Source of the DNA: Steroidobacter sp.
GTDB lineage: Bacteria; Pseudomonadota; Gammaproteobacteria; Steroidobacterales; Steroidobacteraceae
Assembly (NCBI RefSeq): GCF_016790065.1
Contig: NZ_JAEUPY010000487.1
Location: 1-38,577 of the forward strand
DNA length: 38,577 nucleotides
Direction: 5' to 3'
Each line of letters begins with the position of its first letter. Position 1 is the stretch's first letter. Of this stretch, positions 10,375 through 35,803 are shown one piece after another. The translations under genes and the position numbers were made by a program. The notes under the pieces are model-generated. The model ran no database searches and was not told the DNA's origin. It saw only the letters and a program-made list of their open reading frames with translations.

Positions 10375-10420
10375 GCGTTGGACTCGTGATGAACAGTTGC
10401 GTTGGTGTTTGAGCTGAGTG

Positions 10421-11800: not shown

Positions 11801-14181
11801 TCCGTTTCTGACAGGCGCTGCTGCAGCGTCTGACGCGCCTTTTCGAAATGGCTCTGTAGCCTGGGGATCGGCGCGCCTTCGAATGCTTTGCGAAGTTTCT
11901 CTTCGCTGCTGCTAACGATCTTGAGTAACGCAGACGCCGCTGCACGTTCGGTCGCGGGAAGCGTGCTGCCACGCCGGCCGATCCAAATCGGCGAAGTGTG
12001 AGCGAAGGCGTAGTCATCCATCGCCGGCCAACTGGAGATTCGTCCGCCGTGAGCGCGCGCGGCGATCCAGCCACCTTCGGGAATCGCGATGCTGCCGGAG
12101 AAGCTGCGTTTACCGGCTTTGGTCAACCCGCTGCCTTGCCAGACGACTGCGCCGTTGATGAGCAGCTCCAGCTTGTCGAATGCAACTGCACTGTAAACAT
12201 CGAGATGCCATTGAACGGCGGCTGACTTTTCATCGAGCACGTCGCCAGGGCGCGCCGCTGCAACCCGAAGATCCAGCAGTGGCCCGTTGGTGACAAAGCT
12301 CCGACCGGCTTTTAGATCTCGCAGATAGTCATCGAGCTTGAACGGTTGGGGCGTGCGCACGTAAGCGCGCGTTGCGCCCACGGGCATGATGCGAAAGAAA
12401 TTTGCCATCGAGTCCGAGCCGGCGCTCGGTGCAATCGGCAGGCCGAGGTTTAGCAGCTGATACCACACGCCTGCCGCGCCGAGCGCGTCGCTCCACAGGC
12501 ACGACAGCTCGTACAAGTCCACTTCGCCCAGCACTGCATCCGGAATGAGCGAATGCGGTGTCGGGTACGGATGAACGTAGACGTTGACGCCGCCTTGCTT
12601 GCGAGCGTGGCGTAATGCATCCGCATTGAGGCGGTCGTCCCATCGATAAGACTCGTAGTACGGGCCCCAGAACCAGGGCCAGAACAGCTCATTGGCGCCG
12701 ATGATGCCGATGTGTCCGAAGAAGTGCGGCCGGACTTCCTGCGAGAACTGCAGGAACGGCGGTTCACTCAATTGCTGCCAGCCCCAGTACTGCCGATCTT
12801 CCAGGCGCTCGTGCAGATTGGCGACGGTTGGCGTTGCGAAGTCCAAGTCTTCGGCGCGCATTTGCAGGAGTAGATCTTCTGGAGTGAGCCGGTAGGGGCC
12901 GCCGTAGTTGAGGTGCAGATGATGATCTGCCGAGATGTAGCCAGCCGCGCGGGTGTCCCACACCGGCTCCAGCTTTATGGAGATGTCACGCGTCGTTCCG
13001 GCCTCGATGTTTTCGCGGATGACCTTCAATGGAGTTGTGGGGCCGCGCACGGCGGAGATCCGTACGTCGCCTGCTGGCACGGTGATTTCGGTCGTACCTG
13101 GAGAAAAGAAATAGATTGCGCCGCTGGCCAAGTCGAATTTCGGCTGGCCGGCATCCGGTAGGACTGGATGGCCTTGAGCATCCACAACGGCGAGCCGAGC
13201 GGCGTCACCTTTGATCCGAAGTTGTGCCGTCGGCACGCCCCAGTGCCACGCGTGGATCGGCACGTCGATAACGTTGCCGCCCGCATACGGCACCCGCTTC
13301 AACACCATGCGTTCCTGCGCATCGCTTTCCGTGAAATAGATATCTTTGCCTTCGGCGCTCCATGCTGGAGTGAGTGGCAGTCCTCGGGAGAGCACGATAG
13401 CCGAACGTGGCTCGTCGAACGGTAGTAATCGCAGCTCAGGTTCGCTGCTGGACGGCAATGTCACAGCTACCGTGCGACCGTCGGGGCTCAATGCGGGACG
13501 GCTGTGCGAGAGGATGTTGCCCGCATAGAGGGTGCGTTCGTTACCATCCGAAAGATCATGAATGCGAATCTCATCGGGGCCGCTGCCGCTGTCGAAGAAG
13601 TACAGCACCCGCTCGCCGTCGGGATGCACGAGAGGGCGCAGCACGGCGCCTTTGTGATCCGTCAGCCGAGTTCGCTGGCCTGTAGCGAACTCCAGGCGCC
13701 ACAGATCCAAATCGCCTGCGGTGGCCGAAGAGTAATAAAGAAAGCGGCCGTCGGGCGAGAACGTCGGGTCGAGTTCCAGCACCGGCTCGCCAGCCAAAAG
13801 CTGCTCGCGGTTTTCGTTGAGATCGAGCATGACGATGGAGGTGTCGCGGGTATCGTCACGAACGAAGGCGAGGTGTCGGCCATCGGGCGACCAAGCCGGC
13901 CGCGAATCCATGTGAGCGCCCGAGGTAATGCGCCGCGCGACATGCGTTTCAAGATCCAACAACCAAAGCCAGCCGCGTGCCGCGAAAGCGACGTGGCGGC
14001 CATCGGGTGAAGGCGCCGGATCGGTCGGCCCGGCATTCAGCGTGGGCAGGTTGTATGCTTCGAAATAAAGGTGATGGCCGAAGCTCTGCAACTTCGGGTA
14101 GCGATGTCTCCAGTCGGCATGCACCTCGGTCGTCATTGCCAGCAGGAGCAGCACCGCGCTCAACACGGTGCGGTCAATCAT
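11797..14181 (-). CDS. TolB-like beta-propeller plus CehA/McbA-like metallohydrolase (PHP-type) protein
   Basis: 794 residues with a signal peptide (residues 1-22, ending VHAD). Residues about 50-290 carry repeated propeller turns: SPDG at 58, 98, 142 and 232, HPDG at 187. A linker of about 110 residues leads to a C-terminal domain that opens with ISADHHLHL: D419, H420, H421 and H423 are the metal-binding start of PHP-like CehA hydrolases. Further His/Asp motifs follow (VHPYPTPH and GSDSMANF). CehA-type enzymes are named for carbaryl hydrolysis, but most relatives are uncharacterised secreted phosphoesterase- or esterase-like proteins. The gene is joined by ATGA overlaps to fecR upstream (14178-14181) and to the Ere-family gene downstream. 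The two-domain order is clear; the reaction is not. Confidence 0.85.
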   Translation of the reverse strand: MIDRTVLSAVLLLLAMTTEVHADWRHRYPKLQSFGHHLYFEAYNLPTLNAGPTDPAPSPDGRHVAFAARGWLWLLDLETHVARRITSGAHMDSRPAWSPDGRHLAFVRDDTRDTSIVMLDLNENREQLLAGEPVLELDPTFSPDGRFLYYSSATAGDLDLWRLEFATGQRTRLTDHKGAVLRPLVHPDGERVLYFFDSGSGPDEIRIHDLSDGNERTLYAGNILSHSRPALSPDGRTVAVTLPSSSEPELRLLPFDEPRSAIVLSRGLPLTPAWSAEGKDIYFTESDAQERMVLKRVPYAGGNVIDVPIHAWHWGVPTAQLRIKGDAARLAVVDAQGHPVLPDAGQPKFDLASGAIYFFSPGTTEITVPAGDVRISAVRGPTTPLKVIRENIEAGTTRDISIKLEPVWDTRAAGYISADHHLHLNYGGPYRLTPEDLLLQMRAEDLDFATPTVANLHERLEDRQYWGWQQLSEPPFLQFSQEVRPHFFGHIGIIGANELFWPWFWGPYYESYRWDDRLNADALRHARKQGGVNVYVHPYPTPHSLIPDAVLGEVDLYELSCLWSDALGAAGVWYQLLNLGLPIAPSAGSDSMANFFRIMPVGATRAYVRTPQPFKLDDYLRDLKAGRSFVTNGPLLDLRVAAARPGDVLDEKSAAVQWHLDVYSAVAFDKLELLINGAVVWQGSGLTKAGKRSFSGSIAIPEGGWIAARAHGGRISSWPAMDDYAFAHTSPIWIGRRGSTLPATERAAASALLKIVSSSEEKLRKAFEGAPIPRLQSHFEKARQTLQQRLSETE

Positions 14182-22806: not shown

Positions 22807-22922
22807 AGTTGGCCCCCTCCCGGCAAAGTGTAGCCTCTCGCCAGCCACTCGGCGCTGTTTTGCTGAGTAACTTACCGCACTGGTGCGTCTTATTATGCAG
22901 GGGCCCCAAGCGGAACCAGGTT

Positions 22923-23450
22923 GTGCTTGCCAGCGACAGTCTCCCGCCCGTGGAAAAACAGGCGTTCGATCGGCTGAGCCGGACCTTCCGGCCCGGCCTG
23001 ATGGCGTTCTTTCTGCGCCGGGTGGGTAATCGCGCCGAGGCGGAGGACCTGACTCAAGAGGTGTTCGCGCGCCTCGCCGGGATGAATCGCGAGCAGATGC
23101 AGTCGGCTGAGGCGTACATCTTCAGCATGGCCGGCAACCTGTTGCGGGACCGGCAACGCCGCGAAAAGGTGCGTTTCGAGTATCGGGTCGACGCGCTGGC
23201 CTCGGAGAGCGTCGGTATCGATCAGCTCGATCCGCTGCGGGTGGCGGTGGGTCGCGAGATCTTGGCGGATCTGGGCGACGCCTTGAGCGAACTGCCGGAA
23301 GCGACTCGCACGGCCTTCATCCTGTATCGGTTGGAAAACGTGGACAAGCGCGCCATCGCCGCAGCGTTGCGCATGTCCGTGAGCAGCGTCGATCGCCATC
23401 TGTCGCGCGCCATTTCGCATTTGATTCAGCGAGTGAGGGAAAAGACATGA
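22923..23450 (+). CDS. FecI-type ECF sigma factor (unit 2)
   Basis: 175 residues if started at the GTG at 22923, which has GGAA seven bases upstream; the frame is open back to 22809 but the extension would overlap the divergent hydroxylase leader and is not sigma-like. Region 2 lies at about 13-85 (FRPGLMAFFLRRVGN, AEDLTQEVFARLAGM, YIFSMAGNLLRDRQRR) and region 4 at about 118-172 (LSELPEATRTAFILYRLE, MSVSSVDRHLSRAISHL). It overlaps fecR by ATGA. It belongs to a different FecI branch from the two other sigma factors in the window. The probable target is the receptor/isopeptidase transcript starting near 24554. The start codon is less certain than the gene. Confidence 0.88.
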   Translation: MLASDSLPPVEKQAFDRLSRTFRPGLMAFFLRRVGNRAEAEDLTQEVFARLAGMNREQMQSAEAYIFSMAGNLLRDRQRREKVRFEYRVDALASESVGIDQLDPLRVAVGREILADLGDALSELPEATRTAFILYRLENVDKRAIAAALRMSVSSVDRHLSRAISHLIQRVREKT

Positions 23451-24457
23451 TCACGGCGACGGATCGCGTGCAGCAGGCGAGTCAGTGGTGCCTGCGCCTC
23501 GCCGAAGGTGATTTGTCGGTTGAGGCGCGTCGCGACTTCGACGTCTGGACAGCCGACCCGGAGAATGCGCTCGCGTTCGAGGATGCCGCGCGGGTTTGGC
23601 AGGCATTGGAGCGCAGTCATCTGTCGCCGCAGCTCATCGAGATGAGGCGCAGCGCTTTGGACAAGCTGCGCCGTGCGGAAGCGGCAAGCTGGAGTCGTGG
23701 CACGAGCCATCGCTGGCGTTACGTGTCGATCGCGGCGTCGCTTGTTGTGATTCTCATCGGCGCCGCGTTGTGGGTGCGCTTCGCACCCGTGACCTACGTC
23801 ACTGGCATCGGTGAACGGCAGGTGATTGCACTGGCGGACGGCTCGATGTTGACTCTGGACGCACAGAGTGAAGTCGCCGTGCGTTACAACGGCAATCGCC
23901 GTGACTTGTCGTTGCGTCGGGGCCGTGCCAAGTTCCAGGTCGCCAAAGATCCATTGCGACCCTTCAGTGTGAGCGCAGCCGACAAGATGGTGGTGGCGAC
24001 AGGAACCCAATTCAGCGTCGAGCTGCTCTCCCGGAAAGTGCGCGTGGTGTTGTACGAAGGCGCGGTCGAAGTGCTGGCCACGGAAACGTTGCAGCCGGTG
24101 ACGATCACCGCCGCCACTCGCCACCAGCGCGATCCGGGGTTGTTGCCGGGGCGCGAGCTGATTGCACCGACTGAGCAGGCCGTCGCGCAAACTCAACCTG
24201 TCGATTTGTTGCGTGCCGCGTCGTGGGAAGCCGGTCAGGTTGCCTTCAATGACGAGCCGTTGGCCACGGCGGTCGAACGAATGAATCGCTACACCAACGT
24301 GCCCCTCGAGATCGGCGATGAGCAAGCCGCGACCGTGCGCATCAGCGGCGTGTTCGCGGCCGGGGAGCCAGAGGCCTTCATCGAGGGCGTGACCGGCGTG
24401 TTCCCGGTGCGTGTCGATGAGGTGGCGGGCCGGCGCGTGTTCCGCAGCACTCGCTGA
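23447..24457 (+). CDS. FecR-type anti-sigma / sigma regulator (unit 2)
   Basis: 336 residues. The N-terminal sigma-binding segment spans about 10-52 (QWCLRLAEGDLSVEARRDFDVW); a membrane helix lies at about 91-110; the periplasmic FecR domain at about 118-205 includes IALADGSMLTL, GRAKFQV and VATGTQFSVE; a C-terminal STN-like part (FNDEPLATAVERMNRYTN) ends the protein. The start overlaps the sigma stop (23447-23450), as in the other two units. It would read the STN domain of the receptor at 24554 and control the sigma factor just upstream. The FecR-to-receptor gap is 96 bases and contains an inverted repeat. Confidence 0.93.
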   Translation: MITATDRVQQASQWCLRLAEGDLSVEARRDFDVWTADPENALAFEDAARVWQALERSHLSPQLIEMRRSALDKLRRAEAASWSRGTSHRWRYVSIAASLVVILIGAALWVRFAPVTYVTGIGERQVIALADGSMLTLDAQSEVAVRYNGNRRDLSLRRGRAKFQVAKDPLRPFSVSAADKMVVATGTQFSVELLSRKVRVVLYEGAVEVLATETLQPVTITAATRHQRDPGLLPGRELIAPTEQAVAQTQPVDLLRAASWEAGQVAFNDEPLATAVERMNRYTNVPLEIGDEQAATVRISGVFAAGEPEAFIEGVTGVFPVRVDEVAGRRVFRSTR

Positions 24458-24467
24458 CGAACTTTTC

Positions 24468-24534
24468 TGTTTGATGCGTCTACTTGGCATGCGCGACTGA
24501 AAATATTTCGGAGCGCAGGCTCTGGCATCAAACA
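24468..24534. promoter_or_regulatory. inverted repeat flanking the receptor 2 promoter region
   Basis: TGTTTGATGC (24468-24477) and GCATCAAACA (24525-24534) are exact 10-base inverted complements separated by 47 bases. The right arm lies 19 bases before the GTG start. The interval contains the only room for a receptor promoter. It may be paired operator half-sites or a long-loop hairpin. Confidence 0.5.
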
Positions 24535-24549
24535 AACAAATGGGGAAAG
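24525..24549 (+). promoter_or_regulatory. leader and ribosome binding site of TonB receptor 2
   Basis: An AC-rich run (ATCAAACAAACAAAT) leads to GGGGAAAG at 24542-24549, four bases before GTG 24554. The nearby ATG at 24540 is in another frame, so the GTG is the start. Confidence 0.6.
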
Positions 24550-24553
24550 TTTC

Positions 24554-27391
24554 GTGGCCGTCATATTTTCTCGCCCTTGTATCACTGCAGCGGTGCTGGC
24601 CTTGTGCTCACCCGCGATCGTCGCTGCGCAGACCGGTGCTGCCGCCGAAGTTCAAACCGAGAGCTATCGGCTCGATATTCCAGCGCAGCCGCTCAGCGAC
24701 GCGTTGCAGATGTTTGCGCGCCTGGCGCGCCAGCAGCTGTCGTTCGATGCCGCGAGGTTGGCAGGCAAGACCAGTCAGCCGCTCATCGGTGAATTCACAG
24801 CAGAGGCCGCCTTGCGGCGGCTGTTGGTAGGCACCGGCATCGCTTTTCGCAGAGGTTCCCAGGGCGTGTGGCTGGTGGGCCCAGCGCCACTGTCGAACGA
24901 AAGCGCACGCGACGTTGAAGAAATACTCGTCACCGGCTCTCGCCTGTCGCGCGCCGGTGTCGAAGGCCCGGTGCCGGTCAACATTTACACCCGCCGTGAC
25001 ATCGAGCGCAGCGGCCAAATGACGGTCGCCGATTTTCTGAGCACGCTGCCGGAGATTTCGCTCGCCAGTCCTGAAAACTCTTCCGCCACCTACTTCGGTG
25101 AAAGCACCGTGCGGCTACGCGGCTTGCCGGTGGGCACGACGTTGGTGCTGGTCAATGGTCGTCGCGTCACCGGCGGCAGCACCACCGCGGGCTTCGGCGG
25201 ATATCTCGATCTGAACAACATTCCTTCGGGAGTGATCGAGCGCGTCGAGGTGGTGCCCGAAGGCTCGTCGGCCGTGTACGGTTCGGACGCGCTGGCGGGT
25301 GTGGTCAATATCATTCTTAAAAAAGAGATCGACGGCGTACAAAGTAATGTTCGTTACGGCCGGGCTTCCGGCATCGATGAGAAATCGGCGGACGTGGCTT
25401 GGGGCGCGAGTAGCGACCGCGGCGCAATCTCCCTAATCGGTAGCTACTACCAACGCAGCGATCTGGTCGGCACCGAGCGCAGCATCGTGTCGAGCAACGC
25501 GTACGGCACTCTGATCGATCGCTGTAATCCAGGCACGGTGTATTCGGTGGATGGTAGTAACCTGCCTGGCTTGAACTCGCCGACGGCGGCCATGACCGAG
25601 AGCGGTGACTTTGTTGCCGGAGCGGTCAATCGCTGCCGCTATACGAGCGAGCGCGCACTCATTCCCATCGCGCGGCGGGCCAGTGTCTTCGGCTTCGGCA
25701 GCTATCAGTTGACGCCGCAAGTCGAGCTGTTCGCAGAGTTCCTGTACACGCGACAGAATCAGGAATTCGGATTCACTCACTGGACGTTGAACAGGACGCG
25801 CGTGCCCGCCTCGAACGCGTTCAATCCGTTTGGCCAGGACGTGTTGGTGAGCTATCGCTTCAACTCGGCTGGCGCGCTCGCCGGTGTGGAGACTGACGTC
25901 GACTTCATGCGGCCGCTGATCGGCGCCCGCGGTACGTTCGGTAGCGACTGGAAATGGGAAGTCGCGGCGTGGCAGGCGGGGGAGAAAGTATTCGGAGATC
26001 AACGCGGCGGCGCGCTCAACGTAGCCAATCGTGCGGCGGCGCTGGCTTCGTCCGATCCGGCAACGGCATTGAACCTGTTCACCACCGGCGCTTCGGCTTC
26101 GGATGCACTGTTGCGATCGATCTTCACGGAATTCAACTTGCACACGTCCGATCGTAGCCGCATCGTCAATGGCTTCGTGCGCGGCACAGCGTTCGCGCTG
26201 CCGGCCGGCGATGTGAGCGTGGTGCTCGGCGCCGAGTACGTCCGCAACGATTTGAAGTGGCGTGAGACGGCGAGCTATTCCACCGACTCAGCCTACAACT
26301 TCACCTATGACCGCCAAGTGGCGTCGGTGTTCTCGGAGATTCACGTACCGATCATCGCGGGTGCCACAGCACAGTCTGGTGACCTGCTGGCTTTGAGCGG
26401 TGCGCTTCGTTACGACCACTACGATGATTTCGGCGGCCACACCACGCCGCAATTGGCGCTCGAATTTCGACCCTGGCAAAGCTTGCTGGTGAGAGCCGCG
26501 TACGCCGAAGCGTTCAAGGCGCCGAGCCTGATTTCGTTGTATTACCCGGTGTACACCGCCGACAACCAGTGCTGCGTGACCGATCCTCAGCGTGGCGGCG
26601 AGTCGGTGAGTTACATCTATAGTTACGGCGGCGCGCCCGGTTTGAAGCCTGAGAGCGGCGAGTCGTTGTCGGCCGGCCTGGTGTGGTCGCCCACGCAGAT
26701 CGATGGATTGGAAACCTCGTTGAGCTGGTGGCAGATCAAGCAGTACGACCGCACCACCGTGCTGGATCCACAGACTATCGTCGACTACGAGGCGCTGTTT
26801 CCCGGCTACGTGACGCGTGATCCGGTTACGAGAGCAATCCAGGCAGTGTCGGTCGGCTTTGTGAATTTCGGCGAGTTGCAAGTTTCCGGGTTCGACTTCG
26901 ATGTGAGCTATTCGCTATCGACCGCCGCGGGCACTTGGCAGCCCGGGTTGCGGGTGAGCCAGATGTATCAATACGACGCGGCCATCCTGCCGGGCTTGCC
27001 GATGACCGATCGACTGAGCAAGGCCGACGACGATGCCTGGGGACCGCGTTGGAAGGGCGTGCTGAGTCTGGGGTGGTCGCTCGGGGATTACTCGGTAAAC
27101 GTGGCGGGGCGCTATTTGGGGGCGTATGCCGATTACCCGCTCGCTGGCGTGTCCAGGCGCGAGTTGGGCGATTTCTGGTTGTTCGATCTGTCGACCAAAT
27201 ATGACCTCGGTCGTGCGTTCGCCGCCAACAATCGCTATTTGCGGGATGCCTATCTGCAGCTGAGCGTGGTCAACGCGCTCGATTCGCTGCCTCGCTACTC
27301 GGATCATCGCTCGGGGTACATCGGTTACGACCCCGCGCAATACGACATCCGCGGTCGATTCGTCACCGCGCACTTCGGCGTGCAGTTCTGA
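24554..27391 (+). CDS. STN-domain TonB-dependent receptor (unit 2, lasso-isopeptidase linked)
   Basis: 945 residues from GTG. Signal peptide 1-25 (ends VAAQ). The STN domain at about 39-108 (LDIPAQPLSDALQ, FTAEAALRRLLVGTG) marks a signal-transducing receptor. The TonB box VEEILVTG is at 121-128, then a plug with VNGRRVTGG and GSSAVYGSDALAGVVNIILKK, and a barrel ending in VTAHFGVQF with the terminal Phe typical of outer membrane proteins. It contains a NAFNPFGQDVLVSYRF segment matched by NVYNPFGQDVSVYYQF in the receptor at 35895, so these two share a subfamily. It directly precedes the isopeptidase-like gene (10 bases). In characterised lasso-peptide loci such a receptor takes up the lasso peptide for the isopeptidase; that pairing is the basis of the inferred ligand. 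Confidence 0.93.
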   Translation: MAVIFSRPCITAAVLALCSPAIVAAQTGAAAEVQTESYRLDIPAQPLSDALQMFARLARQQLSFDAARLAGKTSQPLIGEFTAEAALRRLLVGTGIAFRRGSQGVWLVGPAPLSNESARDVEEILVTGSRLSRAGVEGPVPVNIYTRRDIERSGQMTVADFLSTLPEISLASPENSSATYFGESTVRLRGLPVGTTLVLVNGRRVTGGSTTAGFGGYLDLNNIPSGVIERVEVVPEGSSAVYGSDALAGVVNIILKKEIDGVQSNVRYGRASGIDEKSADVAWGASSDRGAISLIGSYYQRSDLVGTERSIVSSNAYGTLIDRCNPGTVYSVDGSNLPGLNSPTAAMTESGDFVAGAVNRCRYTSERALIPIARRASVFGFGSYQLTPQVELFAEFLYTRQNQEFGFTHWTLNRTRVPASNAFNPFGQDVLVSYRFNSAGALAGVETDVDFMRPLIGARGTFGSDWKWEVAAWQAGEKVFGDQRGGALNVANRAAALASSDPATALNLFTTGASASDALLRSIFTEFNLHTSDRSRIVNGFVRGTAFALPAGDVSVVLGAEYVRNDLKWRETASYSTDSAYNFTYDRQVASVFSEIHVPIIAGATAQSGDLLALSGALRYDHYDDFGGHTTPQLALEFRPWQSLLVRAAYAEAFKAPSLISLYYPVYTADNQCCVTDPQRGGESVSYIYSYGGAPGLKPESGESLSAGLVWSPTQIDGLETSLSWWQIKQYDRTTVLDPQTIVDYEALFPGYVTRDPVTRAIQAVSVGFVNFGELQVSGFDFDVSYSLSTAAGTWQPGLRVSQMYQYDAAILPGLPMTDRLSKADDDAWGPRWKGVLSLGWSLGDYSVNVAGRYLGAYADYPLAGVSRRELGDFWLFDLSTKYDLGRAFAANNRYLRDAYLQLSVVNALDSLPRYSDHRSGYIGYDPAQYDIRGRFVTAHFGVQF

Positions 27392-27401
27392 GGTGCTCGC
27401 T

Positions 27402-29501
27402 ATGAAGATTCAATGGTCGTTGGTTTGCGGTGTGCTTCTGACTGCGCTCACTCTCGATGCGGCGAGCGCTACATCGAGCCAGGGTTTGAGTGCGGAGCAG
27501 CCTCGCGTCAGTTCGGCTGACTTGGTCGAATTGCGCGCGCTCGGGGGCACGCTAGGCGTGTCGCCGAGTGGCAAGTCGGTGGCATTTCAGCTGCAGCAGG
27601 CGGACTTTGCTGCTCGCACCTATCGATCGAGCTGGCATGTCGTAGCCATCGCCGGGGGCCCACCGATTCGCGTCGGCGAGGGTGGCGACGTCATTTTGGA
27701 TCGCAGCGATGAGGGCGCCCTGATGGGCGGGCGTGTCGCGCCTACCGTGCAATGGTCGCCGGATGAGCGATGGATTGCTTATCTGCGCAAGGATGCTGGC
27801 ACTGTGCAGCTCTGGCGTAGCAGTGCCGATGGCGTAACTCAGCAACAACTGACGCACGGCTCGGCGGATGTCATGGAGTTCGAATGGTCCGCGAATGGTG
27901 AGTCGTTGTACTTCGAGACTGGCCGTGAGCACGAGGCGATGTTGGCGGCGGAGCAGGAGGAGGGGGATCGAGGCTACTTGCTCGACGATCGATTCATGCC
28001 GGATGCGAGTCGCAAGCCACTGTGGCCGATCTGCAAGCGTGAACAGGCTCCTGCGCAGAGCGGATCGAGGCAATGTAGCACCACGCTACGCGTGCTGGAG
28101 CTGGCGTCAGGGCAAGAACGCGGCGCCACTAGCGACGAGCAAGAAGGCTACTCGTTGCGCAAGCGGCCGGCGGCAGTTGCAGGACTCGACTCAACTCGGC
28201 AAGTGCAGAAAGTCATTCGCAACTTGGCCGGCTCGCGCAGCGCGTGGCTGGAGAATGAGAATCCTCGCGAGTTTCCTGGTCTGCATCCGCCGCTGACGCT
28301 CTATGTGGATGGCAAGCGATGCGACGCGCCCGCCTGTCACGGTCGGTTGAACGACGTGTGGTGGCGCGATGACCAGATCGTGTTCCGCCGTCGCGAAGGC
28401 CATGCCAATCGTTTCAGCGTCTTCTATGTGTGGGCACCGGATAAGCGTGGCGCACCTCGCCAGGTGTATCGCACTGAGGACCAACTCGATGCCTGCAAGT
28501 TGGCGCAAGGCCGACTGGTTTGTCTGTACGAGTCGCCCACGCTGCCGAACCGTCTCGTCAGCATCGACCTCGAGCGCGGCAAGCTGCGCACGGTGCTCGA
28601 TCCCAATCCGGACTTCGCACGCTTCGACCTGGGCAAGGTCGAGCTGCTGGAATGGCACGACGCTTTCGGCAATCCGACGTTCGGACATCTGGTGCTGCCG
28701 CCGGACTACCAGCCCGGTCGCCGTTATCCCCTGGTGATCGTTCAGTACCGCTCGCGCGGCTTTCTCAACGGCGGCGTAGGCGATGAGTACCCCATCTATC
28801 CGCTGGCGGCTGCCGGCATGGCGGTGTTGAGTTTCGATTGCCCCACGGATGCGAATTTCAACATGCGCAATGACCCCAAGAACCTCGGGGCGTGGATCGA
28901 GGCATCGCTGCGCGACGGACATGAGCGACGCATGGATCTGAGTGCACTCGACATCGTCATCGACCAGCTCGATCAGCGCGGCATCATCGATCCGCGTCGG
29001 GTCGGTGTCACAGGGCTGAGTCATGGTGCGGACAATGTGGAGTTCATGCTGTTCAACTCCACACGCTTCGCCGCGGCGGCGGTCAGCGGTGCCTGGTCAC
29101 GGCCGCAATATTTCTATCTGAATCCGAACACCTGGTACCGCAACGAGATGATCAAATATGCGCTCGGCGCCCAGAATGCAGAGCAGGTATCGGAACGCGG
29201 TCGGGTTGCTTCCATCGTGTACAACACCGACAAGGTCACCACGCCGTTGCTGATCCAGGCGCCGGACGCCGAGCTACTCGCGACGCTGCCAATTCACATT
29301 GCATTGCTGGATGCCGGCAAGCCGGTGGAGACCTATGTGTTCCCGGACGAGTACCACATCAAATGGCAACCTCAGCACAAGCGGGCGATCGCTGAGCGCA
29401 GTATCGATTGGTTCCGTTTCTGGCTGCTGAATAGCGAAGATGCCAGCCCCGACAAAGCGGAGCAGTACTCGCGCTGGCGCAAGCTGCGCGGGCCGGCCTG
29501 A
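27402..29501 (+). CDS. lasso peptide isopeptidase-like S9 hydrolase (AtxE2 type)
   Basis: 699 residues from the ATG at 27402, which has GAGG eight bases upstream; a GTG at 27393 is the alternative. Signal peptide about 1-24. An N-terminal propeller (VSPSGKSVAFQ, WSPDERWIAYL, EWSANGESLYFE) is followed by an alpha/beta hydrolase domain: GLSHGADNVEF with Ser540, APDAEL with Asp622 and DEYHIKWQPQHK with His652. Three details fit the AtxE2 family as I remember it rather than general S9 peptidases: the RGYLLDDRFMP segment, the unusual elbow followed by LFNS, and the HIKWQP-H...IDWFRFWL ending. AtxE2 enzymes cut the isopeptide bond that closes lasso peptides. Gene order sigma, FecR, receptor, isopeptidase is the order known beside lasso clusters. 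No precursor, B or C gene is in the window. Confidence 0.8.
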   Translation: MKIQWSLVCGVLLTALTLDAASATSSQGLSAEQPRVSSADLVELRALGGTLGVSPSGKSVAFQLQQADFAARTYRSSWHVVAIAGGPPIRVGEGGDVILDRSDEGALMGGRVAPTVQWSPDERWIAYLRKDAGTVQLWRSSADGVTQQQLTHGSADVMEFEWSANGESLYFETGREHEAMLAAEQEEGDRGYLLDDRFMPDASRKPLWPICKREQAPAQSGSRQCSTTLRVLELASGQERGATSDEQEGYSLRKRPAAVAGLDSTRQVQKVIRNLAGSRSAWLENENPREFPGLHPPLTLYVDGKRCDAPACHGRLNDVWWRDDQIVFRRREGHANRFSVFYVWAPDKRGAPRQVYRTEDQLDACKLAQGRLVCLYESPTLPNRLVSIDLERGKLRTVLDPNPDFARFDLGKVELLEWHDAFGNPTFGHLVLPPDYQPGRRYPLVIVQYRSRGFLNGGVGDEYPIYPLAAAGMAVLSFDCPTDANFNMRNDPKNLGAWIEASLRDGHERRMDLSALDIVIDQLDQRGIIDPRRVGVTGLSHGADNVEFMLFNSTRFAAAAVSGAWSRPQYFYLNPNTWYRNEMIKYALGAQNAEQVSERGRVASIVYNTDKVTTPLLIQAPDAELLATLPIHIALLDAGKPVETYVFPDEYHIKWQPQHKRAIAERSIDWFRFWLLNSEDASPDKAEQYSRWRKLRGPA

Positions 29502-30447: not shown

Positions 30448-31773
30448 TCACGGGCTTGGCCGGGGCAGCAGGAAACTCAGGCCTTCCACCAAGCCATTGC
30501 GCCAATTCAGATAGCTGTGGTCGCCTTGGAACTCGTCGTAGCGCAACGGATTGCCTTTGGCGGTGAGCACGTCGCGAAACAGCCGATTCGGTGCCAGCAT
30601 GGGCTCGCCTTCTGCGCTGCCGACTGCCAGGTAAAAGCGCAAGGGCAGTCGTGGGCGTGCCGCATACTGGTGCGGCAACCAGCCGCTGCCCTGAGCCGTC
30701 GAGTGTTCGCCGTCGGCTGATGGATGCCACCAATACGAACCCGACAGGGACAGCACGTTGCCGAATGTTTCTGGATGCAGGTAGCCAAGGTAAGCCGACG
30801 AAAGACCGCCGAGACTCGAGCCGGCAACCACGGTGAGTCGTGGGTCGCGTGTCACTCGATAATTTTTCCGTACGCGAGGTAGCAACTCATCGACCACAAA
30901 CTTTGCGAACTGCGCGTTCGCCGCCAGTTCCTCACTGCGACGGGTGTTGTCGATGGCGCTCACTAACACGGCGACCAGCGGCGGCAATGTGCCGTCCGTA
31001 ATCAAGTTGTCCAGAATCGTGGGCGTCGGTACTGAGAGCAGGTAGCCCTCGCGATCGAACAGCACCAGCAGCGGCAAGCGCTTGGAGCTTCGTGCGTAGC
31101 CGGGCGGTGTATACACGGACACGCGTCGGCGGTTGTTGAGGATGGCGCTGGTGATCTCGAAGGTGTCGACGGCACCGGCTGCGATCGAGGGATCGGGTTG
31201 CAGCCAAGCTTCGGCTGGCGCGGACGGACCTTCGAAGTACGAGGTCGGTGTGGGTGCGCCATCGAAATCGTCGACATAACGATGTTGGCTGCGAGGATCT
31301 GCAAACAGTTCGTACGTCAGTCCATTCGCCTGCATGCGCCAGACAGCCTGCGGGTCGTCATTGCGCCCGCGAGGCCAAGCCAAGTAGTACCGATATCGAG
31401 CGCGTGCGTCGACGAGTAAGCTGGTCTGCATCACATCGGTGCCCGGCAAGCGTTCGAAGGGCACGACTTGTCGGCTGCCGCCGGGAGCGAAGCTGGCGAT
31501 CAGACCGACGTTGCTTTCGTTGTCCGTCTCGGTTTGTCGCCACAGGAAGGTTGTGCGCATCTGTTCCGGTTGTCCCGGCACTGACTCCAACAGCGGTGTG
31601 CCACGCTTTTCCACTGCGCTCCAGAGTGCCGCCACCGCTGCAGCTCGTGTCTCCGGCGTCGCTGAGCGGATGGCGGTAATTTCGGGCACTTCCGCGCTGT
31701 GCTCGGCTGTGGCGGAGCTGACCCAAGTCAGTAGCGCTACGAGCGCGAGGGCATGTGACGCGAATGTTTTCAT
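30448..31773 (-). CDS. Fes-like siderophore esterase (enterochelin esterase family)
   Basis: 441 residues from the ATG at 31773 (a GTG nine bases upstream is possible). Signal peptide about 1-23 (ends SSATA), so periplasmic. The N-terminal half (about 60-160) resembles the Fes N-terminal beta domain, with TFLWRQTE and AWPRGRNDDPQAVW. The C-terminal esterase_D domain has VYTPPGY, LFDREGYL, then GSSLGGLSS with Ser320 and GDHSYLNWR with His419. Fes-type enzymes hydrolyse the ester backbone of catecholate siderophores to free iron; others act on related esters. Its position divergent to a siderophore receptor and upstream of an AraC regulator supports a siderophore role. No siderophore synthesis gene is seen, so it may serve a foreign siderophore. 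Confidence 0.88.
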   Translation of the reverse strand: MKTFASHALALVALLTWVSSATAEHSAEVPEITAIRSATPETRAAAVAALWSAVEKRGTPLLESVPGQPEQMRTTFLWRQTETDNESNVGLIASFAPGGSRQVVPFERLPGTDVMQTSLLVDARARYRYYLAWPRGRNDDPQAVWRMQANGLTYELFADPRSQHRYVDDFDGAPTPTSYFEGPSAPAEAWLQPDPSIAAGAVDTFEITSAILNNRRRVSVYTPPGYARSSKRLPLLVLFDREGYLLSVPTPTILDNLITDGTLPPLVAVLVSAIDNTRRSEELAANAQFAKFVVDELLPRVRKNYRVTRDPRLTVVAGSSLGGLSSAYLGYLHPETFGNVLSLSGSYWWHPSADGEHSTAQGSGWLPHQYAARPRLPLRFYLAVGSAEGEPMLAPNRLFRDVLTAKGNPLRYDEFQGDHSYLNWRNGLVEGLSFLLPRPSP

Positions 31774-31945
31774 CGAGATCACGCACGAGGTCCGGGGGAA
31801 GGGCGTTGCGAATGTGGCACAGCGCGCCGCACATCGGAAGCAAGTGCGCCTGCATTGGCCCTCTCGCGATACCGCCCGTGCCGGACAAGACAGGATGAGC
31901 CAAGAGGCGCTGGTAAGTTTTTATCTCGACACACCGCCGCGCGTC

Positions 31946-31984
31946 ATTCGCGCAGGCAAGCGCCAAGAAGGGATTCGCAGGCAA
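31946..31984. promoter_or_regulatory. direct repeats in the esterase/receptor divergent region, candidate AraC boxes
   Basis: CGCAGGCAA occurs at 31951-31959 and 31976-31984, 25 bases apart, each preceded by ATTCG (31946-31950 and 31973-31977, the second overlapping the repeat). Same-orientation repeats of this kind suit an AraC regulator. They lie 26-64 bases upstream of the receptor ATG at 32010, close to the translation signals. Confidence 0.4.
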
Positions 31985-32009
31985 CGAATACAATTTGGGA
32001 GACTGCGAC

Positions 32010-34124
32010 ATGACGATGGCTGCTCGTTCTTTCTGGTCCGTCGGTGCGACCACGGTGTTGGCCTTTGCAGCGACCGCTACGCTGGCGCAAGGCGCTTCGG
32101 CGGGCGCTGACGCGGAGGAAGGAGACACACTCGAAGCCATTACTGTGCTCGCCAAACGTCATGCGATGACGCGGCCGGCGCAGGGTGCGAAACTCCCTGT
32201 GGCACTCATCGACTTGCCGCAGTCGGTCACCATCATCGATCGCGAACTGCTCAGCGATCAGAACGTCGTGCTGCTGCAGGATGCGTTACGCAATGCCGGC
32301 GGCGTGGTCCCGGGCGGCTACTTTCAGGGCTTCGATTTCTATCGTATCCGCGGTTTCGATTCGAGCGGCTTCACTTTCCTCGACGGCTTGCTCGCCGATC
32401 AGACCTTCTGGACCCAGGAAGAGCTGTTCGGCATGGAACAGGTCGAGGTGTTGAAAGGTCCGGTGTCGGGCCTGTTCGGTCAGTCGCCCGCCGGCGGTCT
32501 GGTCAACTTGGTGAGCAAGCGGCCCAAGCGCGATCAGTTTCTGCATCTCGAAGCTTCTACTGGCAGCGACGACTACATGGACATCGGCGTCGACGGTAAC
32601 ACGCAAATCGGCGAGCGAGTGGCGCTGCGAGTGAATGCTCTCTATCGCGAACACGGCAGCTTCGTGGACAACGTCGCTTTGGCCAAGCGTTATTTCCTCG
32701 CGCCTGCACTCACGTGGGATATCGGCGATGCCACGCATCTCACCTTGCTGGGTCAGTTCATCAGCGAAGACACCGGCATTGCGCAACCGCTGCCGGCCGA
32801 AGGCACGGTGCTGCCCAATCCCGCCGGCAACATTCCACGCACGCGCGCGATCGGCGAACCGACGTTTCGTGATGGCGCCGACATCGAGCGACGCCAGGCG
32901 GGCTGGGATTTCACTCACGACTTCAGCGACGCGCTGTCGTTTCGACAAATGGCACGTGCCAGCAGCATCGACGTCGACTTCCAGGCCATCTATCCGTGGT
33001 ATGTCGATGAAGACCTGCGCACGTTGAATCGTTATGCACGCAAGCAAAAGGTCGAGGCGACGGCTTACGCAGTCGACAATCAGCTGATTGCCAAGGTGGC
33101 CACCGGCAGCGCACGGCACACCATGGTGGGTGGCATCGACTACTATCGATTCGACCAGCAACAAGGCTTCGCGTACTACAGCTTTTCCGGCCCGGGCCTG
33201 GCGCCCATCGATCTGTTCGATCCGCAATACGGCGAAGTGGTGCCGGATTTCTCGGTACGCCGGCTGATTCCGACCCGACTCAAACGCGTCGGTGCTTACT
33301 TTCAAGATCAGGTCGAGCTGACCGATCGTTTCTCGGTGCTGTTCGGCGGCCGCTACGACTGGACTGAAGACAACGATGCCAAGGACCGCAAGTTCACGCC
33401 GCGGGCCGGCGTCACCTTCAAGGTAGTGCCCGGCGCCAACGTGTTTGCCAGCTATGCGAAGTCGTTCCAGCCGCAGGGCGGCTATGTCACGGCCGCTGGC
33501 GACCCGCTGCCGCCCGAAACCGGCGAGCAATTCGAGATCGGCCTGAAGACCGAACTGTTCGGCGACCGACTGGCCGGCACCATTTCCGTGTATCAGCTGA
33601 CGCGCCAGGACATCGCCACCGACGATCCGAACTCCGAAGAGTATGTGTTCATCACCACCGGCGAGCAGCGCAGCCGCGGCGTGGAGATCGACGGGGTGGT
33701 ACGCATCACGCCGACGTGGGAAGTGATCGCCAACTACTCATACACCGACGCTGAAATCACTCGCGACAACGAGCTCGTGGTCGGCTCGCCGACGGTCAAC
33801 ATTCCAAAGAACGGCTTCAATATCTGGACCAAGTACGTCATCGCAGATGGCTTGCTGCGCGGTCTTGGATTCAGCGCCGGCGTGCGTCACTACAGCGCGC
33901 AGGCGGGCGATCTGAAGTACGTGGGGGCTGAAAGTGACGCCTTCGAGCTGCCGTCGTATACGGTCTGCGATGCCGGCGTATCCTACGATCGGGATCGGTA
34001 CACGCTACGATTCAATGTCAGTAACCTGACCCAGGAAGACTATTTCCCCGCGTCCTACGGACGTACCTTTGTGATGCCCGGCGAGCCTCGGACCTATCGC
34101 TTCGGGGTGTCTTACGACTTCTAA
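32010..34124 (+). CDS. TonB-dependent siderophore receptor without STN domain
   Basis: 704 residues from the ATG at 32010, preceded by GGGAGA (31997-32002); the in-frame TTG at 31995 is rejected. Signal peptide about 1-27 (ATLAQGASA). There is no STN domain: the TonB-box region (LEAITVLAKR) directly follows. The plug shows LPQSVTIIDRELL, YRIRGFDSSG and MEQVEVLKGPVSGLFGQSPAGGLVN, and the barrel ends in TYRFGVSYDF. The plug with a D-L-P-Q-S-V-T start and G-L-F-G-x-x-x-P-G-G pattern is that of FhuA/FpvA-like siderophore receptors. It is divergent from the esterase and AraC genes. It lies 24 bases before sigma factor 3, so that sigma gene may be read through from here. Confidence 0.93.
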   Translation: MTMAARSFWSVGATTVLAFAATATLAQGASAGADAEEGDTLEAITVLAKRHAMTRPAQGAKLPVALIDLPQSVTIIDRELLSDQNVVLLQDALRNAGGVVPGGYFQGFDFYRIRGFDSSGFTFLDGLLADQTFWTQEELFGMEQVEVLKGPVSGLFGQSPAGGLVNLVSKRPKRDQFLHLEASTGSDDYMDIGVDGNTQIGERVALRVNALYREHGSFVDNVALAKRYFLAPALTWDIGDATHLTLLGQFISEDTGIAQPLPAEGTVLPNPAGNIPRTRAIGEPTFRDGADIERRQAGWDFTHDFSDALSFRQMARASSIDVDFQAIYPWYVDEDLRTLNRYARKQKVEATAYAVDNQLIAKVATGSARHTMVGGIDYYRFDQQQGFAYYSFSGPGLAPIDLFDPQYGEVVPDFSVRRLIPTRLKRVGAYFQDQVELTDRFSVLFGGRYDWTEDNDAKDRKFTPRAGVTFKVVPGANVFASYAKSFQPQGGYVTAAGDPLPPETGEQFEIGLKTELFGDRLAGTISVYQLTRQDIATDDPNSEEYVFITTGEQRSRGVEIDGVVRITPTWEVIANYSYTDAEITRDNELVVGSPTVNIPKNGFNIWTKYVIADGLLRGLGFSAGVRHYSAQAGDLKYVGAESDAFELPSYTVCDAGVSYDRDRYTLRFNVSNLTQEDYFPASYGRTFVMPGEPRTYRFGVSYDF

Positions 34125-34148
34125 ACCTGCGCCCTGAAAAAATAGTTC

Positions 34149-34757
34149 ATGCCGGATGACAGTAAACAGGCCGCTGAGCGTCTTACTGCGATGTCAGCCG
34201 GTTCCCGCCTGAATCCGCCGTCGCCGGAGTTGCCGCCTTTGCGGGGCGATACGCGTGTCAGCGACGTGGAACGCATTTTCCGGGAGCACAACGATTCGCT
34301 GGTCCGCTTCATCGCCGCGCGGCTGGGGTCGAAGCAGGAGGCGGCCGAAGTCGCTCAGGAGGCTTACGTCAGGCTGCTGAGCCTGGATCATGAGGAAGCC
34401 GTGAGCTACCTGCGCGCGTTCCTATTCAAGACCGCCGCTAATTTAGCAACAGACCGGTTGCGAGTCCGCTCCCGGCGCGGCTTCATGACAGCCTCGGTAG
34501 AAAAGGCGGTGTTCGAGCTGTCCCCGGAGCGGGAGCTGGAGGGCGAGCAGGCGGTCGAACGGTTGCGTCAGGCCATCGACGAGCTGCCGCAGAAATGTCG
34601 GGAAGCGTTCTTGCTGTACCGGCTCGAAGAGCTGAGTTGTGCCGATATTGCCGTACGCCTGGGGCTGCAGGAGCGAATGGTGTGGCGGTATATCGCACGC
34701 GCGCTCGAGTACATTCGTGTGCGGGTCAAAGGTGAGTCTGGGGAGCGGGCGCCATGA
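34149..34757 (+). CDS. FecI-type ECF sigma factor (unit 3)
   Basis: 202 residues. A Pro-rich, probably disordered start (about 1-38) precedes region 2 at about 40-110 (VERIFREHNDSLVRF, EVAQEAYVRLLSLD, AFLFKTAANLATDRLR) and region 4 at about 143-195 (LPQKCREAFLLYRLE, LGLQERMVWRYIARALEYIRV). The ribosome binding site at 34149 is weak, so a downstream ATG at 34191 is possible, though it has no better site. It overlaps fecR by ATGA. It is closely similar to sigma factor 1 across both regions. The 24-base gap to the preceding siderophore receptor leaves little room for an independent promoter unless that promoter lies inside the receptor gene. Confidence 0.93.
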   Translation: MPDDSKQAAERLTAMSAGSRLNPPSPELPPLRGDTRVSDVERIFREHNDSLVRFIAARLGSKQEAAEVAQEAYVRLLSLDHEEAVSYLRAFLFKTAANLATDRLRVRSRRGFMTASVEKAVFELSPERELEGEQAVERLRQAIDELPQKCREAFLLYRLEELSCADIAVRLGLQERMVWRYIARALEYIRVRVKGESGERAP

Positions 34758-35803
34758 ACGATCATGACGCCACTGAGCGCGACGCCGCCGAATGGTTCCT
34801 GGCGATTCAATCCGCACAGGATCCTGATCCCGAGACGTTGCAGGCTTGGTTGCGCTGGCTGGAGGCCAGCGAACAGAACCGACAGGCCTTCGAAGAGATC
34901 GCGCAGGTCTGGAACACTACGCCGTATGCGGTGATGGCCAAGCCCGCCACTGCGATCGCCGATGAAGACTACGACGCTTCCATTCCTATCGCCGAGTGGC
35001 TCGCCAACAGCCAAGTTGCAACTGCCGGCGCGGTAGTCTCAAGCAAACGCTTGTGGCTGCGTCCGTTGCTTGCAGTCGCTGCATCGCTTGCGTTCGTTGC
35101 CGTTGGATGGGTGTCGTACCGCGCGCTCGCTCCGATACAGCAAGGTGAGTTTGTCACTGGCACCGGCGAACAACGACAACTGAAGTTGGCCGATGGTTCG
35201 CATATCACGTTGGGCGCGCATTCGCGGCTGAGTGTCGATCTGACCGAAACTCGCCGCCAAGTACATCTTCAGGCCGGCGAAGCCTACTTCTCCGTCCACA
35301 AAGATCCGCGACGACCGTTCGTCGTGGAGGCGATGAAGAGCACGATTACTGCGGTTGGTACTGCTTTCAACGTCCGAGCAATCGAAGATCGACTGACCGT
35401 GACGGTGAGCGAAGGCAGAGTCAAAGTAGCGAATCTGCCAGAGCCTGCCATTGACGCGCCGGTGCCTGAGTCGATTGGCATGCTGGGGCGTGGTCAGCAG
35501 CTGACGTATACGCACGGGATCTCGCAAGGCGAGCTTGCGATCATCAAACCAGTGGACACCCACGATTCGGCGCGGTGGCGTGAAGGCTGGTTGATTTATC
35601 GCGACGAGCCGCTGAAGTATGTGATCGCCGATATCGCACGCTACACCGATCTCAACGTCGAAGTCACGGCCATCGCAGCCGAGGCACATTTCAGCGGCGC
35701 CGTTTCCAAGGATGGCATCGCAGAATGGGTGGCAGCGCTGCCCGACGTCATTGCCGTCTCGGTCACGCCCACCGAGGCAGGCTTCAGGATCAGCGAGCGT
35801 TAA
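34754..35803 (+). CDS. FecR-type anti-sigma / sigma regulator (unit 3)
   Basis: 349 residues. Sigma-binding segment about 10-50 (AAEWFLAIQSAQDPDPETLQAW, NRQAFEEI); membrane helix about 100-121; periplasmic FecR domain about 140-210 (LKLADGSHITLGAHS, GEAYFSVHKDPRRPF, AVGTAFNVR); a C-terminal STN-like part (YRDEPLKYVIADIARYTDL) closes it. The start overlaps the sigma stop (34754-34757). It should sense the STN receptor at 35895, 91 bases downstream. A 10-base inverted repeat begins at the last base of its stop codon. Confidence 0.93.
   Translation: MNDHDATERDAAEWFLAIQSAQDPDPETLQAWLRWLEASEQNRQAFEEIAQVWNTTPYAVMAKPATAIADEDYDASIPIAEWLANSQVATAGAVVSSKRLWLRPLLAVAASLAFVAVGWVSYRALAPIQQGEFVTGTGEQRQLKLADGSHITLGAHSRLSVDLTETRRQVHLQAGEAYFSVHKDPRRPFVVEAMKSTITAVGTAFNVRAIEDRLTVTVSEGRVKVANLPEPAIDAPVPESIGMLGRGQQLTYTHGISQGELAIIKPVDTHDSARWREGWLIYRDEPLKYVIADIARYTDLNVEVTAIAAEAHFSGAVSKDGIAEWVAALPDVIAVSVTPTEAGFRISER

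What the first reader, a model, noticed from the sequence alone, without database searches (positions are those of the whole stretch)
22923..29501. Orphan lasso-peptide uptake and opening module: sigma, FecR, STN receptor, isopeptidase-like enzyme
The enzyme at 27402 has the elbow GLSHG, the YHIKWQP-H segment and the WFRFWL end I associate with AtxE2-type lasso isopeptidases, and sits directly behind an STN receptor and its sigma/FecR pair, the order known next to lasso clusters. Yet no precursor, B (peptidase/RRE) or C (cyclase) gene is visible. This would be a scavenger that imports and unlocks lasso peptides made by others, with induction by the peptide itself. The seen part is the triad and gene order; the AtxE2 call is from memory of the family; scavenging is inference.
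Basis: partly seen in the sequence, partly recalled or inferred. Interest (0 to 1): 0.8.

Follow-up and report, generated by a model that had tools for sequence, protein, structure and literature searches.

The report
Stand-alone lasso peptide import-and-opening module
A soil-type bacterium carries a complete set of genes to sense, import and cut open knotted "lasso" peptides without the genes to make one beside it, and close relatives carry several such sets, which suggests that these bacteria take up lasso peptides made elsewhere, possibly by neighbours.

Summary
A sigma/FecR/STN-receptor/hydrolase operon lies at 22809 (or 22923) to 29501. The hydrolase is an AtxE2-type lasso isopeptidase: NF033523 649 bits, cut-off 400; AtxE2 is the best sequence and fold match; the catalytic Ser/Glu/His are kept; the tree places it in the isopeptidase clade, not among S9 peptidases. 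No lasso precursor, B or C gene, or remnant, was found in the 38.6-kb contig.

"Orphan" holds for the locus only. The same genome has lasso A-B-C loci on contigs C570 and C214 and a B-less A-C locus on C49, so it is no pure scavenger.

The stronger result is comparative. In the genus, 8 of 12 isopeptidases stand alone, against 4 of 83 in a mostly sphingomonad sample. Peristeroidobacter soli has seven, only one beside a cluster; one lone module is sphingomonad-like in both enzyme and receptor. G390, a sphingomonad, has the module and no lasso B or C found.

Best reading: a receiver module for lasso peptides not made at the locus. Foreign origin is likelier; the cell's own peptides are not excluded.

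The parts
22809..23450 (+). ECF sigma factor (FecI-like); a GTG at 22923 is an alternative start
   Evidence: Pfam Sigma70_r2 and Sigma70_r4_2 over cut-off; TIGR02937 over cut-off; GTG at 22923 in frame
23447..24457 (+). FecR-type anti-sigma regulator; overlaps the sigma gene by 4 bases
   Evidence: Pfam FecR 78.9 bits and DUF4880 32.3 bits, both over cut-off
24554..27391 (+). TonB-dependent receptor with N-terminal STN signalling domain
   Evidence: Pfam STN, Plug and TonB_dep_Rec_b-barrel, all over cut-off; receptor trees
27402..29501 (+). AtxE2-type lasso peptide isopeptidase; its N-terminal stretch looks like a signal peptide (read by eye, no predictor run); Ser540, Glu624, His652
   Evidence: NF033523 649 bits, cut-off 400; 5txc E 6.1e-107; model pLDDT 89.1, Foldseek 5txc E 6.7e-65, TMq 0.82; triad and family columns

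Best explanation
A stand-alone receiver module for lasso peptides. Proposed course: a threaded lasso peptide, not encoded at this locus, binds the STN receptor; binding is signalled through FecR to the ECF sigma factor, which switches on the operon (inferred from the FecI/FecR/FecA architecture); the receptor takes the peptide through the outer membrane with TonB energy (inferred); the isopeptidase, probably periplasmic, cuts the ring's isopeptide bond and turns the knot into a linear peptide (inferred from family, triad and fold), which common peptidases can degrade. The peptide's source is most likely other bacteria, either soil relatives or sphingomonad-type producers. Shown: gene identities, operon layout, absence of biosynthesis genes at the locus, conserved catalytic residues, recurrence of such unlinked modules. 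Inferred: ligand, transport, induction, cleavage, foreign origin.
For: (1) The enzyme is in the AtxE2 family by curated model, PDB sequence and fold and tree. Ser, Glu and His of the triad are present in 13 of 13 unlinked enzymes and in 85, 84 and 85 of 85 linked ones; five S9 peptidases have Asp in place of Glu; the window keeps 37 of 39 family-conserved columns, those S9 peptidases 19-24. (2) Purifying selection: dN/dS about 0.21 (0.292/1.407, synonymous sites near saturation) against its P. soli counterpart and 0.13 (0.138/1.066) for the C358 / G106-C1 pair. (3) The unlinked state is not an assembly artefact in the nearest relative (62-63% identity): it lies on a 733,728-base P. soli contig on which the searches found no lasso B or C. 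(4) P. soli (G106) has 7 isopeptidases over cut-off but only 2 lasso B and 3 lasso C genes, with 1 isopeptidase beside them. Of 24 lasso peptides tried with SpI-IsoP only its own was cut (PMC9266682, passages), so if each enzyme takes a different peptide and each locus makes one, at least four of the seven lack a home-made substrate. (5) A P. soli unlinked module (L053) nests with Sphingomonadaceae in both the enzyme tree (98) and the receptor trees (96-97; 97/93). (6) G390, a sphingomonad (2 contigs, listed 100% complete), has the module, no lasso B and only a generic 57.9-bit C match. (7) The unlinked state needs at least 10 changes on the enzyme tree for 13 unlinked and 70 linked tips.
Against: The host genome itself carries lasso loci (C570, C214, C49). 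The window's receptor clade is sister to a clade that holds the receptors of the genus's own isopeptidase-less lasso loci (98/99), which fits processing of the cell's own or kin peptides in trans. The assembly is fragmented (937 contigs) and the far side of the C214 cluster is not seen. No ligand was identified. In G043 the related enzyme is linked to a biosynthesis cluster and its receptor is of another lineage, so enzyme and receptor do reshuffle. Counted by genome, the enrichment of unlinked copies in the genus is weak (2 of 5 against 4 of 70 genomes, p = 0.048); counted by gene it leans on P. soli's six copies.
Confidence: 0.55

Rival explanations
1. In-trans recycling: the module takes back and opens lasso peptides made by the same cell at other loci (C570, C49 or C214). 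The isopeptidase gene has simply moved away from its biosynthesis genes.
For: The genome has three lasso loci; the only isopeptidases over cut-off in the genome lie on C810 and C358, none on those three contigs. The window receptor clade is sister to the clade with the receptors of C570-type and C49-type loci (98/99). Of the 11 genomes searched with the C-gene profile, only G000 and G106 have a C49-type locus (an intact C gene without B), and these two also carry window-type modules.
Against: C570-type clusters occur in G115, G123 and G074, whose only isopeptidase over cut-off stands beside a different cluster. P. soli has more unlinked isopeptidases (6) than lasso loci without a linked one (2). 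G390 has the module and no lasso B or C found. The G000/G106 co-occurrence may be shared ancestry.
Confidence: 0.28
2. The enzyme has drifted to another substrate (branched, cyclic or isopeptide-bonded peptides other than lassos), and the operon is one of several peptide-uptake systems in a hydrolase-rich contig.
For: The contig carries other predicted amide and peptide hydrolases: two PF00144 proteins (one D-aminopeptidase-like, below that model's cut-off), a penicillin acylase, S9 and S58 peptidases, an amidohydrolase, plus another FecR/STN-receptor pair. Related modules in C358 and G106 (L054) carry a second, diverged S9 enzyme between receptor and isopeptidase.
Against: 37 of 39 family-conserved columns are kept, the glutamate that sets the family apart included; the nearest branch contains a cluster-linked enzyme (G043).
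Confidence: 0.12
3. Protection rather than feeding: the module disarms antimicrobial lasso peptides that would enter through this receptor.
For: The family opens lasso peptides by specific hydrolysis (PMC9266682, passages).
Against: A dedicated receptor with signal-driven expression would draw the toxin in; known lasso peptides from isopeptidase clusters are said to lack antimicrobial activity, astexin-1 excepted (PMC9266682, passages).
Confidence: 0.05

Closest known systems
AtxE2 lasso isopeptidase and the astexin-2/3 cluster of Asticcacaulis excentricus
   Same: Enzyme family, fold and catalytic Ser/Glu/His; isopeptidase clusters have a TonB transporter and sigma/anti-sigma pair near the isopeptidase gene (review PMC9266682, passages)
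   Different: Here no precursor, B or C gene at the locus; 36% identity over the fold alignment; the host is inferred to be a gammaproteobacterium of the genus of P. soli
Isopeptidase-containing lasso clusters of Sphingomonadaceae
   Same: Sigma-FecR-receptor-isopeptidase order
   Different: In 79 of 83 sampled loci (82 Sphingomonadaceae plus G362 of the window's class) a lasso B or C gene lies in the stretch fetched; here an AraC-type gene stands in that place
Fec-type cell-surface signalling (FecI/FecR/FecA) and uptake of siderophores made by others
   Same: STN receptor, anti-sigma, ECF sigma; an uptake system kept without biosynthesis (analogy from general knowledge)
   Different: Ligand is predicted to be a lasso peptide, with a dedicated opening enzyme

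Membership tests
AtxE2-type lasso peptide isopeptidase (NF033523) | Score over the curated cut-off of the family model | tested here: met
   649 bits against 400
AtxE2-type lasso peptide isopeptidase (NF033523) | Ser-Glu-His triad at the AtxE2 positions | tested here: met
   S540, E624, H652 align with S, E, H of AtxE2; eight outgroup enzymes have Asp (5), Ser (2) or Ala (1) at the Glu site. 5txe is the S527A variant; the numbers E610 and H638 are recalled
AtxE2-type lasso peptide isopeptidase (NF033523) | Propeller plus alpha/beta-hydrolase fold, nearest to AtxE2 | tested here: met
   AtxE2 first, TMq 0.82, rmsd 3.3
AtxE2-type lasso peptide isopeptidase (NF033523) | Falls within the isopeptidase clade, not among S9 peptidases | tested here: met
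   84-row isopeptidase set, SH-aLRT 98, S9 rows outside (quick tree, no bootstrap)
AtxE2-type lasso peptide isopeptidase (NF033523) | Cleaves the isopeptide bond of a threaded lasso peptide | not testable with these tools
   Needs an enzyme assay
Isopeptidase-containing lasso biosynthetic cluster | Precursor A, B (PF13471) and C genes at the locus | tested here: not met
   None found in the 38.6-kb contig, no remnant
Fec-type cell-surface signalling system | ECF sigma, FecR and STN-bearing receptor genes in one row | tested here: met
Fec-type cell-surface signalling system | Induction of the operon by the transported ligand | not testable with these tools
   Needs a reporter assay

The most novel reading that the evidence does not exclude
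Some Steroidobacteraceae, P. soli above all, keep a repertoire of receiver-only lasso modules, each with its own receptor and ring-opening enzyme and most with their own sigma/FecR pair, partly acquired from sphingomonads, and use lasso peptides made by neighbours as food or as a signal of who is nearby.
Probability: 0.45. Interest if true: 0.8.

Novelty: new variant of a known kind. Interest (0 to 1): 0.62.

Why it matters
What lasso peptides with isopeptidases are for is called enigmatic in a review (PMC9266682, passages). Modules that import and open lasso peptides without making them separate uptake and opening from production. If foreign peptides are the substrate, the peptides act between species, and a strain with seven isopeptidases gives a direct test: feed defined lasso peptides and read which sigma/FecR module responds. 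I found no description of such unlinked modules in the papers listed or read in passages (searches), which cover open-licence PubMed Central only.

Tried and rejected
Ordinary S9/dipeptidyl peptidase: rejected by family score, triad and tree. Lasso cluster lost through contig ends: rejected for this contig within its 27 kb and 9 kb of flank, and for the P. soli counterpart on a 733,728-base contig. Decayed biosynthesis genes beside the module: tblastn in 18 stretches (L005 and L008 cover the same places as L055 and L058) with three linked loci as positive controls; 17 gave nothing better than E 0.018, and only L101 (G681: broken C gene, no B found) shows decay. A single origin of the unlinked form: not favoured, at least 10 changes for 13 unlinked tips (no shuffled-label control was printed). 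A search for ten-residue lasso rings in print gave 55 papers, 20 listed, none of those about such rings by title and abstract.

Rows dropped or counted by judgement: the tree used 92 of 115 collected sequences (15 near-duplicates at 65% identity or more, 7 weak S9 matches and one duplicate left out). Nine matches below the family cut-off (fragments or weak) were not fetched. The B-match listing was truncated, so linkage was judged from fetched DNA. L082 (G682) counts as unlinked although lasso B/C genes lie 22 kb away on the same contig; strictly 3 of 83 are clean. L070 (G043) counts as linked because its contig end shares 197 identical bases with the contig that holds B and C. The first precursor scan missed ten-residue-ring candidates, so it was repeated in wider form.
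Full report
WHAT IS THERE. The window is a whole contig (G000:C810, 38,577 bases) of an 8.5-Mb assembly in 937 contigs, 96.4% complete, 5.6% contaminated. The operon reads ECF sigma (22809 or 22923 to 23450), FecR (23447-24457), STN/plug/barrel TonB receptor (24554-27391) and hydrolase (27402-29501), with junctions of 4 bases overlap, 96 bases and 10 bases. The hydrolase passes the curated lasso isopeptidase model at 649 bits over 400; its best PDB match is AtxE2. An AlphaFold2 prediction on 27 aligned relatives has mean pLDDT 89.1 and pTM 0.89, and Foldseek puts AtxE2 first (E 6.7e-65, TMq 0.82, 36% identity), ahead of SpI-IsoP and other S9 enzymes. Residues 1-30 have low confidence with a predicted helix at 5-20, and the sequence looks like a signal peptide; of four cysteines, C307, C365 and C374 are invariant and C312 nearly so across the 27 sequences, which would suit a periplasmic enzyme. 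Both points are inferences.

FAMILY TESTS. On an alignment of 85 cluster-linked and 13 unlinked enzymes, triad Ser and His are present in all, and Glu in 84 of 85 linked and 13 of 13 unlinked; eight outgroup enzymes have Asp (5), Ser (2) or Ala (1) at the Glu site. Of 39 columns at 95% or more in linked enzymes, the window keeps 37, AtxE2 37, unlinked enzymes 36-39, linked ones 32-39, outgroups 19-29. A 92-row quick tree places the window enzyme with P. soli L055 (SH-aLRT 100), in a five-row clade (99) with the C358, P. soli C1 and G043 enzymes, inside the isopeptidase set (98); the ordinary S9 peptidases fall outside. Three diverged enzymes (L060 and the second S9 enzymes of C358 and L054) also fall outside this set, with a warning that long branches meet.

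IS IT AN ORPHAN? On the contig, yes: no PF13471 B gene, no C gene, no remnant by tblastn with 186 B/C proteins (best E 0.052), and no precursor-like ORF by two forms of a pattern. Genome-wide, no: lasso B genes lie on C570 and C214, each with a C gene and a precursor-like ORF, and C49 carries a precursor-like ORF and a C gene without B in the 20 kb seen. The genome has two isopeptidases over the cut-off, the window's and one on C358, both behind sigma, FecR and receptor genes and without biosynthesis genes.

COMPARATIVE SURVEY. In the genus, 5 of 14 genomes carry isopeptidases over the cut-off, 12 genes; 10 of 14 carry lasso B. Four of the 12 stand beside B and C (G106 C2, G115, G123, G074) and eight do not: two in G000, six in G106. 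Its six unlinked enzymes lie on contigs C1, C3, C5 and C8, on which no lasso B and no strong C match was found (C1 and C3 hold generic matches of 68 and 75 bits). Five of the six have sigma, FecR and receptor genes at hand; L058 has FecR and a receptor but no sigma match in the stretch. In the family as a whole the enzyme was found in 6 of 150 sampled genomes and PF13471 in 42 of 150 (the weakest matches are probably not lasso B). In 397 genomes of f46, inferred to be Sphingomonadaceae, 70 have enzymes over the cut-off and 192 have PF13471. I fetched the surroundings of all 82 over-cut-off genes plus G362: 79 of 83 have lasso B or C in the stretch, 4 do not. Per gene, 8 of 12 against 4 of 83 gives Fisher p = 1.7e-6; per genome, 2 of 5 against 4 of 70 gives p = 0.048. 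The per-gene figure leans on P. soli's six copies. A further unlinked locus, L007, comes from an uncultured bacterium.

WHOSE PEPTIDE? Three facts favour foreign peptides for the family. P. soli has seven isopeptidases against two B and three C genes, and the tested enzymes are reported as highly substrate-specific (PMC9266682, passages). One P. soli unlinked module, L053, is sphingomonad-like in enzyme (98) and receptor (97/93). G390 has the module but no lasso B match and only a generic C match (57.9 bits). Against this, for the window copy itself: its receptor belongs to a clade sister to the one holding the receptors of the genus's own isopeptidase-less lasso loci (98/99), and the C49-type locus occurs in the same two genomes as window-type modules. 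Own-peptide processing in trans therefore stays open. G115, G123 and G074 keep C570-type clusters with no unlinked isopeptidase, so that cluster does not need one.

EVOLUTION. The unlinked state needs at least 10 changes on the enzyme tree for 13 unlinked and 70 linked tips, so it arose repeatedly or modules moved often. Enzyme and receptor distances correlate (Mantel r 0.52, 0 of 999 permutations as high, 82 pairs; Steroidobacter-type subset r 0.50, 0 of 999, 14 pairs), which fits inheritance as a unit, with exceptions such as G043. dN/dS is about 0.21 (window against L055) and 0.13 (C358 against L054) for the enzyme, so these unlinked copies look maintained.

LITERATURE. Seen as passages: PMC9266682, PMC11006600, PMC13352647, PMC12670498 (outline). 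[quoted passage not shown] the third says the gene is found colocalised with lasso clusters. The searches named under Why it matters brought no description of unlinked modules in what was listed. Two key papers tried, on the AtxE2 structure and on AtxE2 specificity, are not held; the others were not tried.

VERDICT. A true stand-alone lasso import-and-opening operon: known parts in an unlinked arrangement that is enriched in this genus. Foreign peptide as substrate is my best reading at 0.55, own-peptide recycling 0.28, other substrates 0.12, protection 0.05.

Noticed in passing
L156 (G000:C49) 9885-12100 and L157 (G106:C7) 9270-11500: A lasso C gene with a precursor-like ORF and a convergent TonB receptor but no B gene in the 20-kb stretch; the leader resembles that of the C570-type clusters, so the locus may borrow their B protein.
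   Followed up: partly
L024, L061, L063, L065, L068, L156, L157 (precursor ORFs beside lasso C): After the leader's Thr-Lys/Arg, the predicted cores start with Gln in six of seven loci (Glu in L061), and Asp stands at position 10 in all seven, the first acidic residue after position 1. This would mean a ten-residue ring, or nine if the leader is cut one residue later.
   Followed up: partly
L024, L061, L063, L065, L068: C570-type lasso clusters conserved in five genomes with receptor and FecR (and sigma where the contig reaches) but no isopeptidase in the stretch.
   Followed up: partly
L026 10195-12408 and L054 10851-13067: A second, diverged S9 enzyme (about 30% identity to the isopeptidase) between receptor and isopeptidase in both loci, with Ser in place of the triad Glu.
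   Followed up: partly
L060 8624-14754 (G106:C3): FecR-receptor-enzyme row whose receptor is sister to the window/L055 pair but whose enzyme scores below the isopeptidase cut-off (246 bits).
   Followed up: no
window 17-21242: Dense run of predicted amide and peptide hydrolases (two PF00144 proteins, penicillin acylase, S9, CehA/McbA metallohydrolase, S58, amidohydrolase) with a second FecR and STN-receptor gene.
   Followed up: partly
L101 (G681) 8863-12279: Isopeptidase locus with a broken lasso C gene and no B gene found in the genome: a cluster that seems to be decaying towards the receiver-only state.
   Followed up: partly
window 30448-35803: Enterochelin-esterase-like protein beside a siderophore-type receptor and another sigma/FecR pair, downstream of the module.
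   Followed up: no
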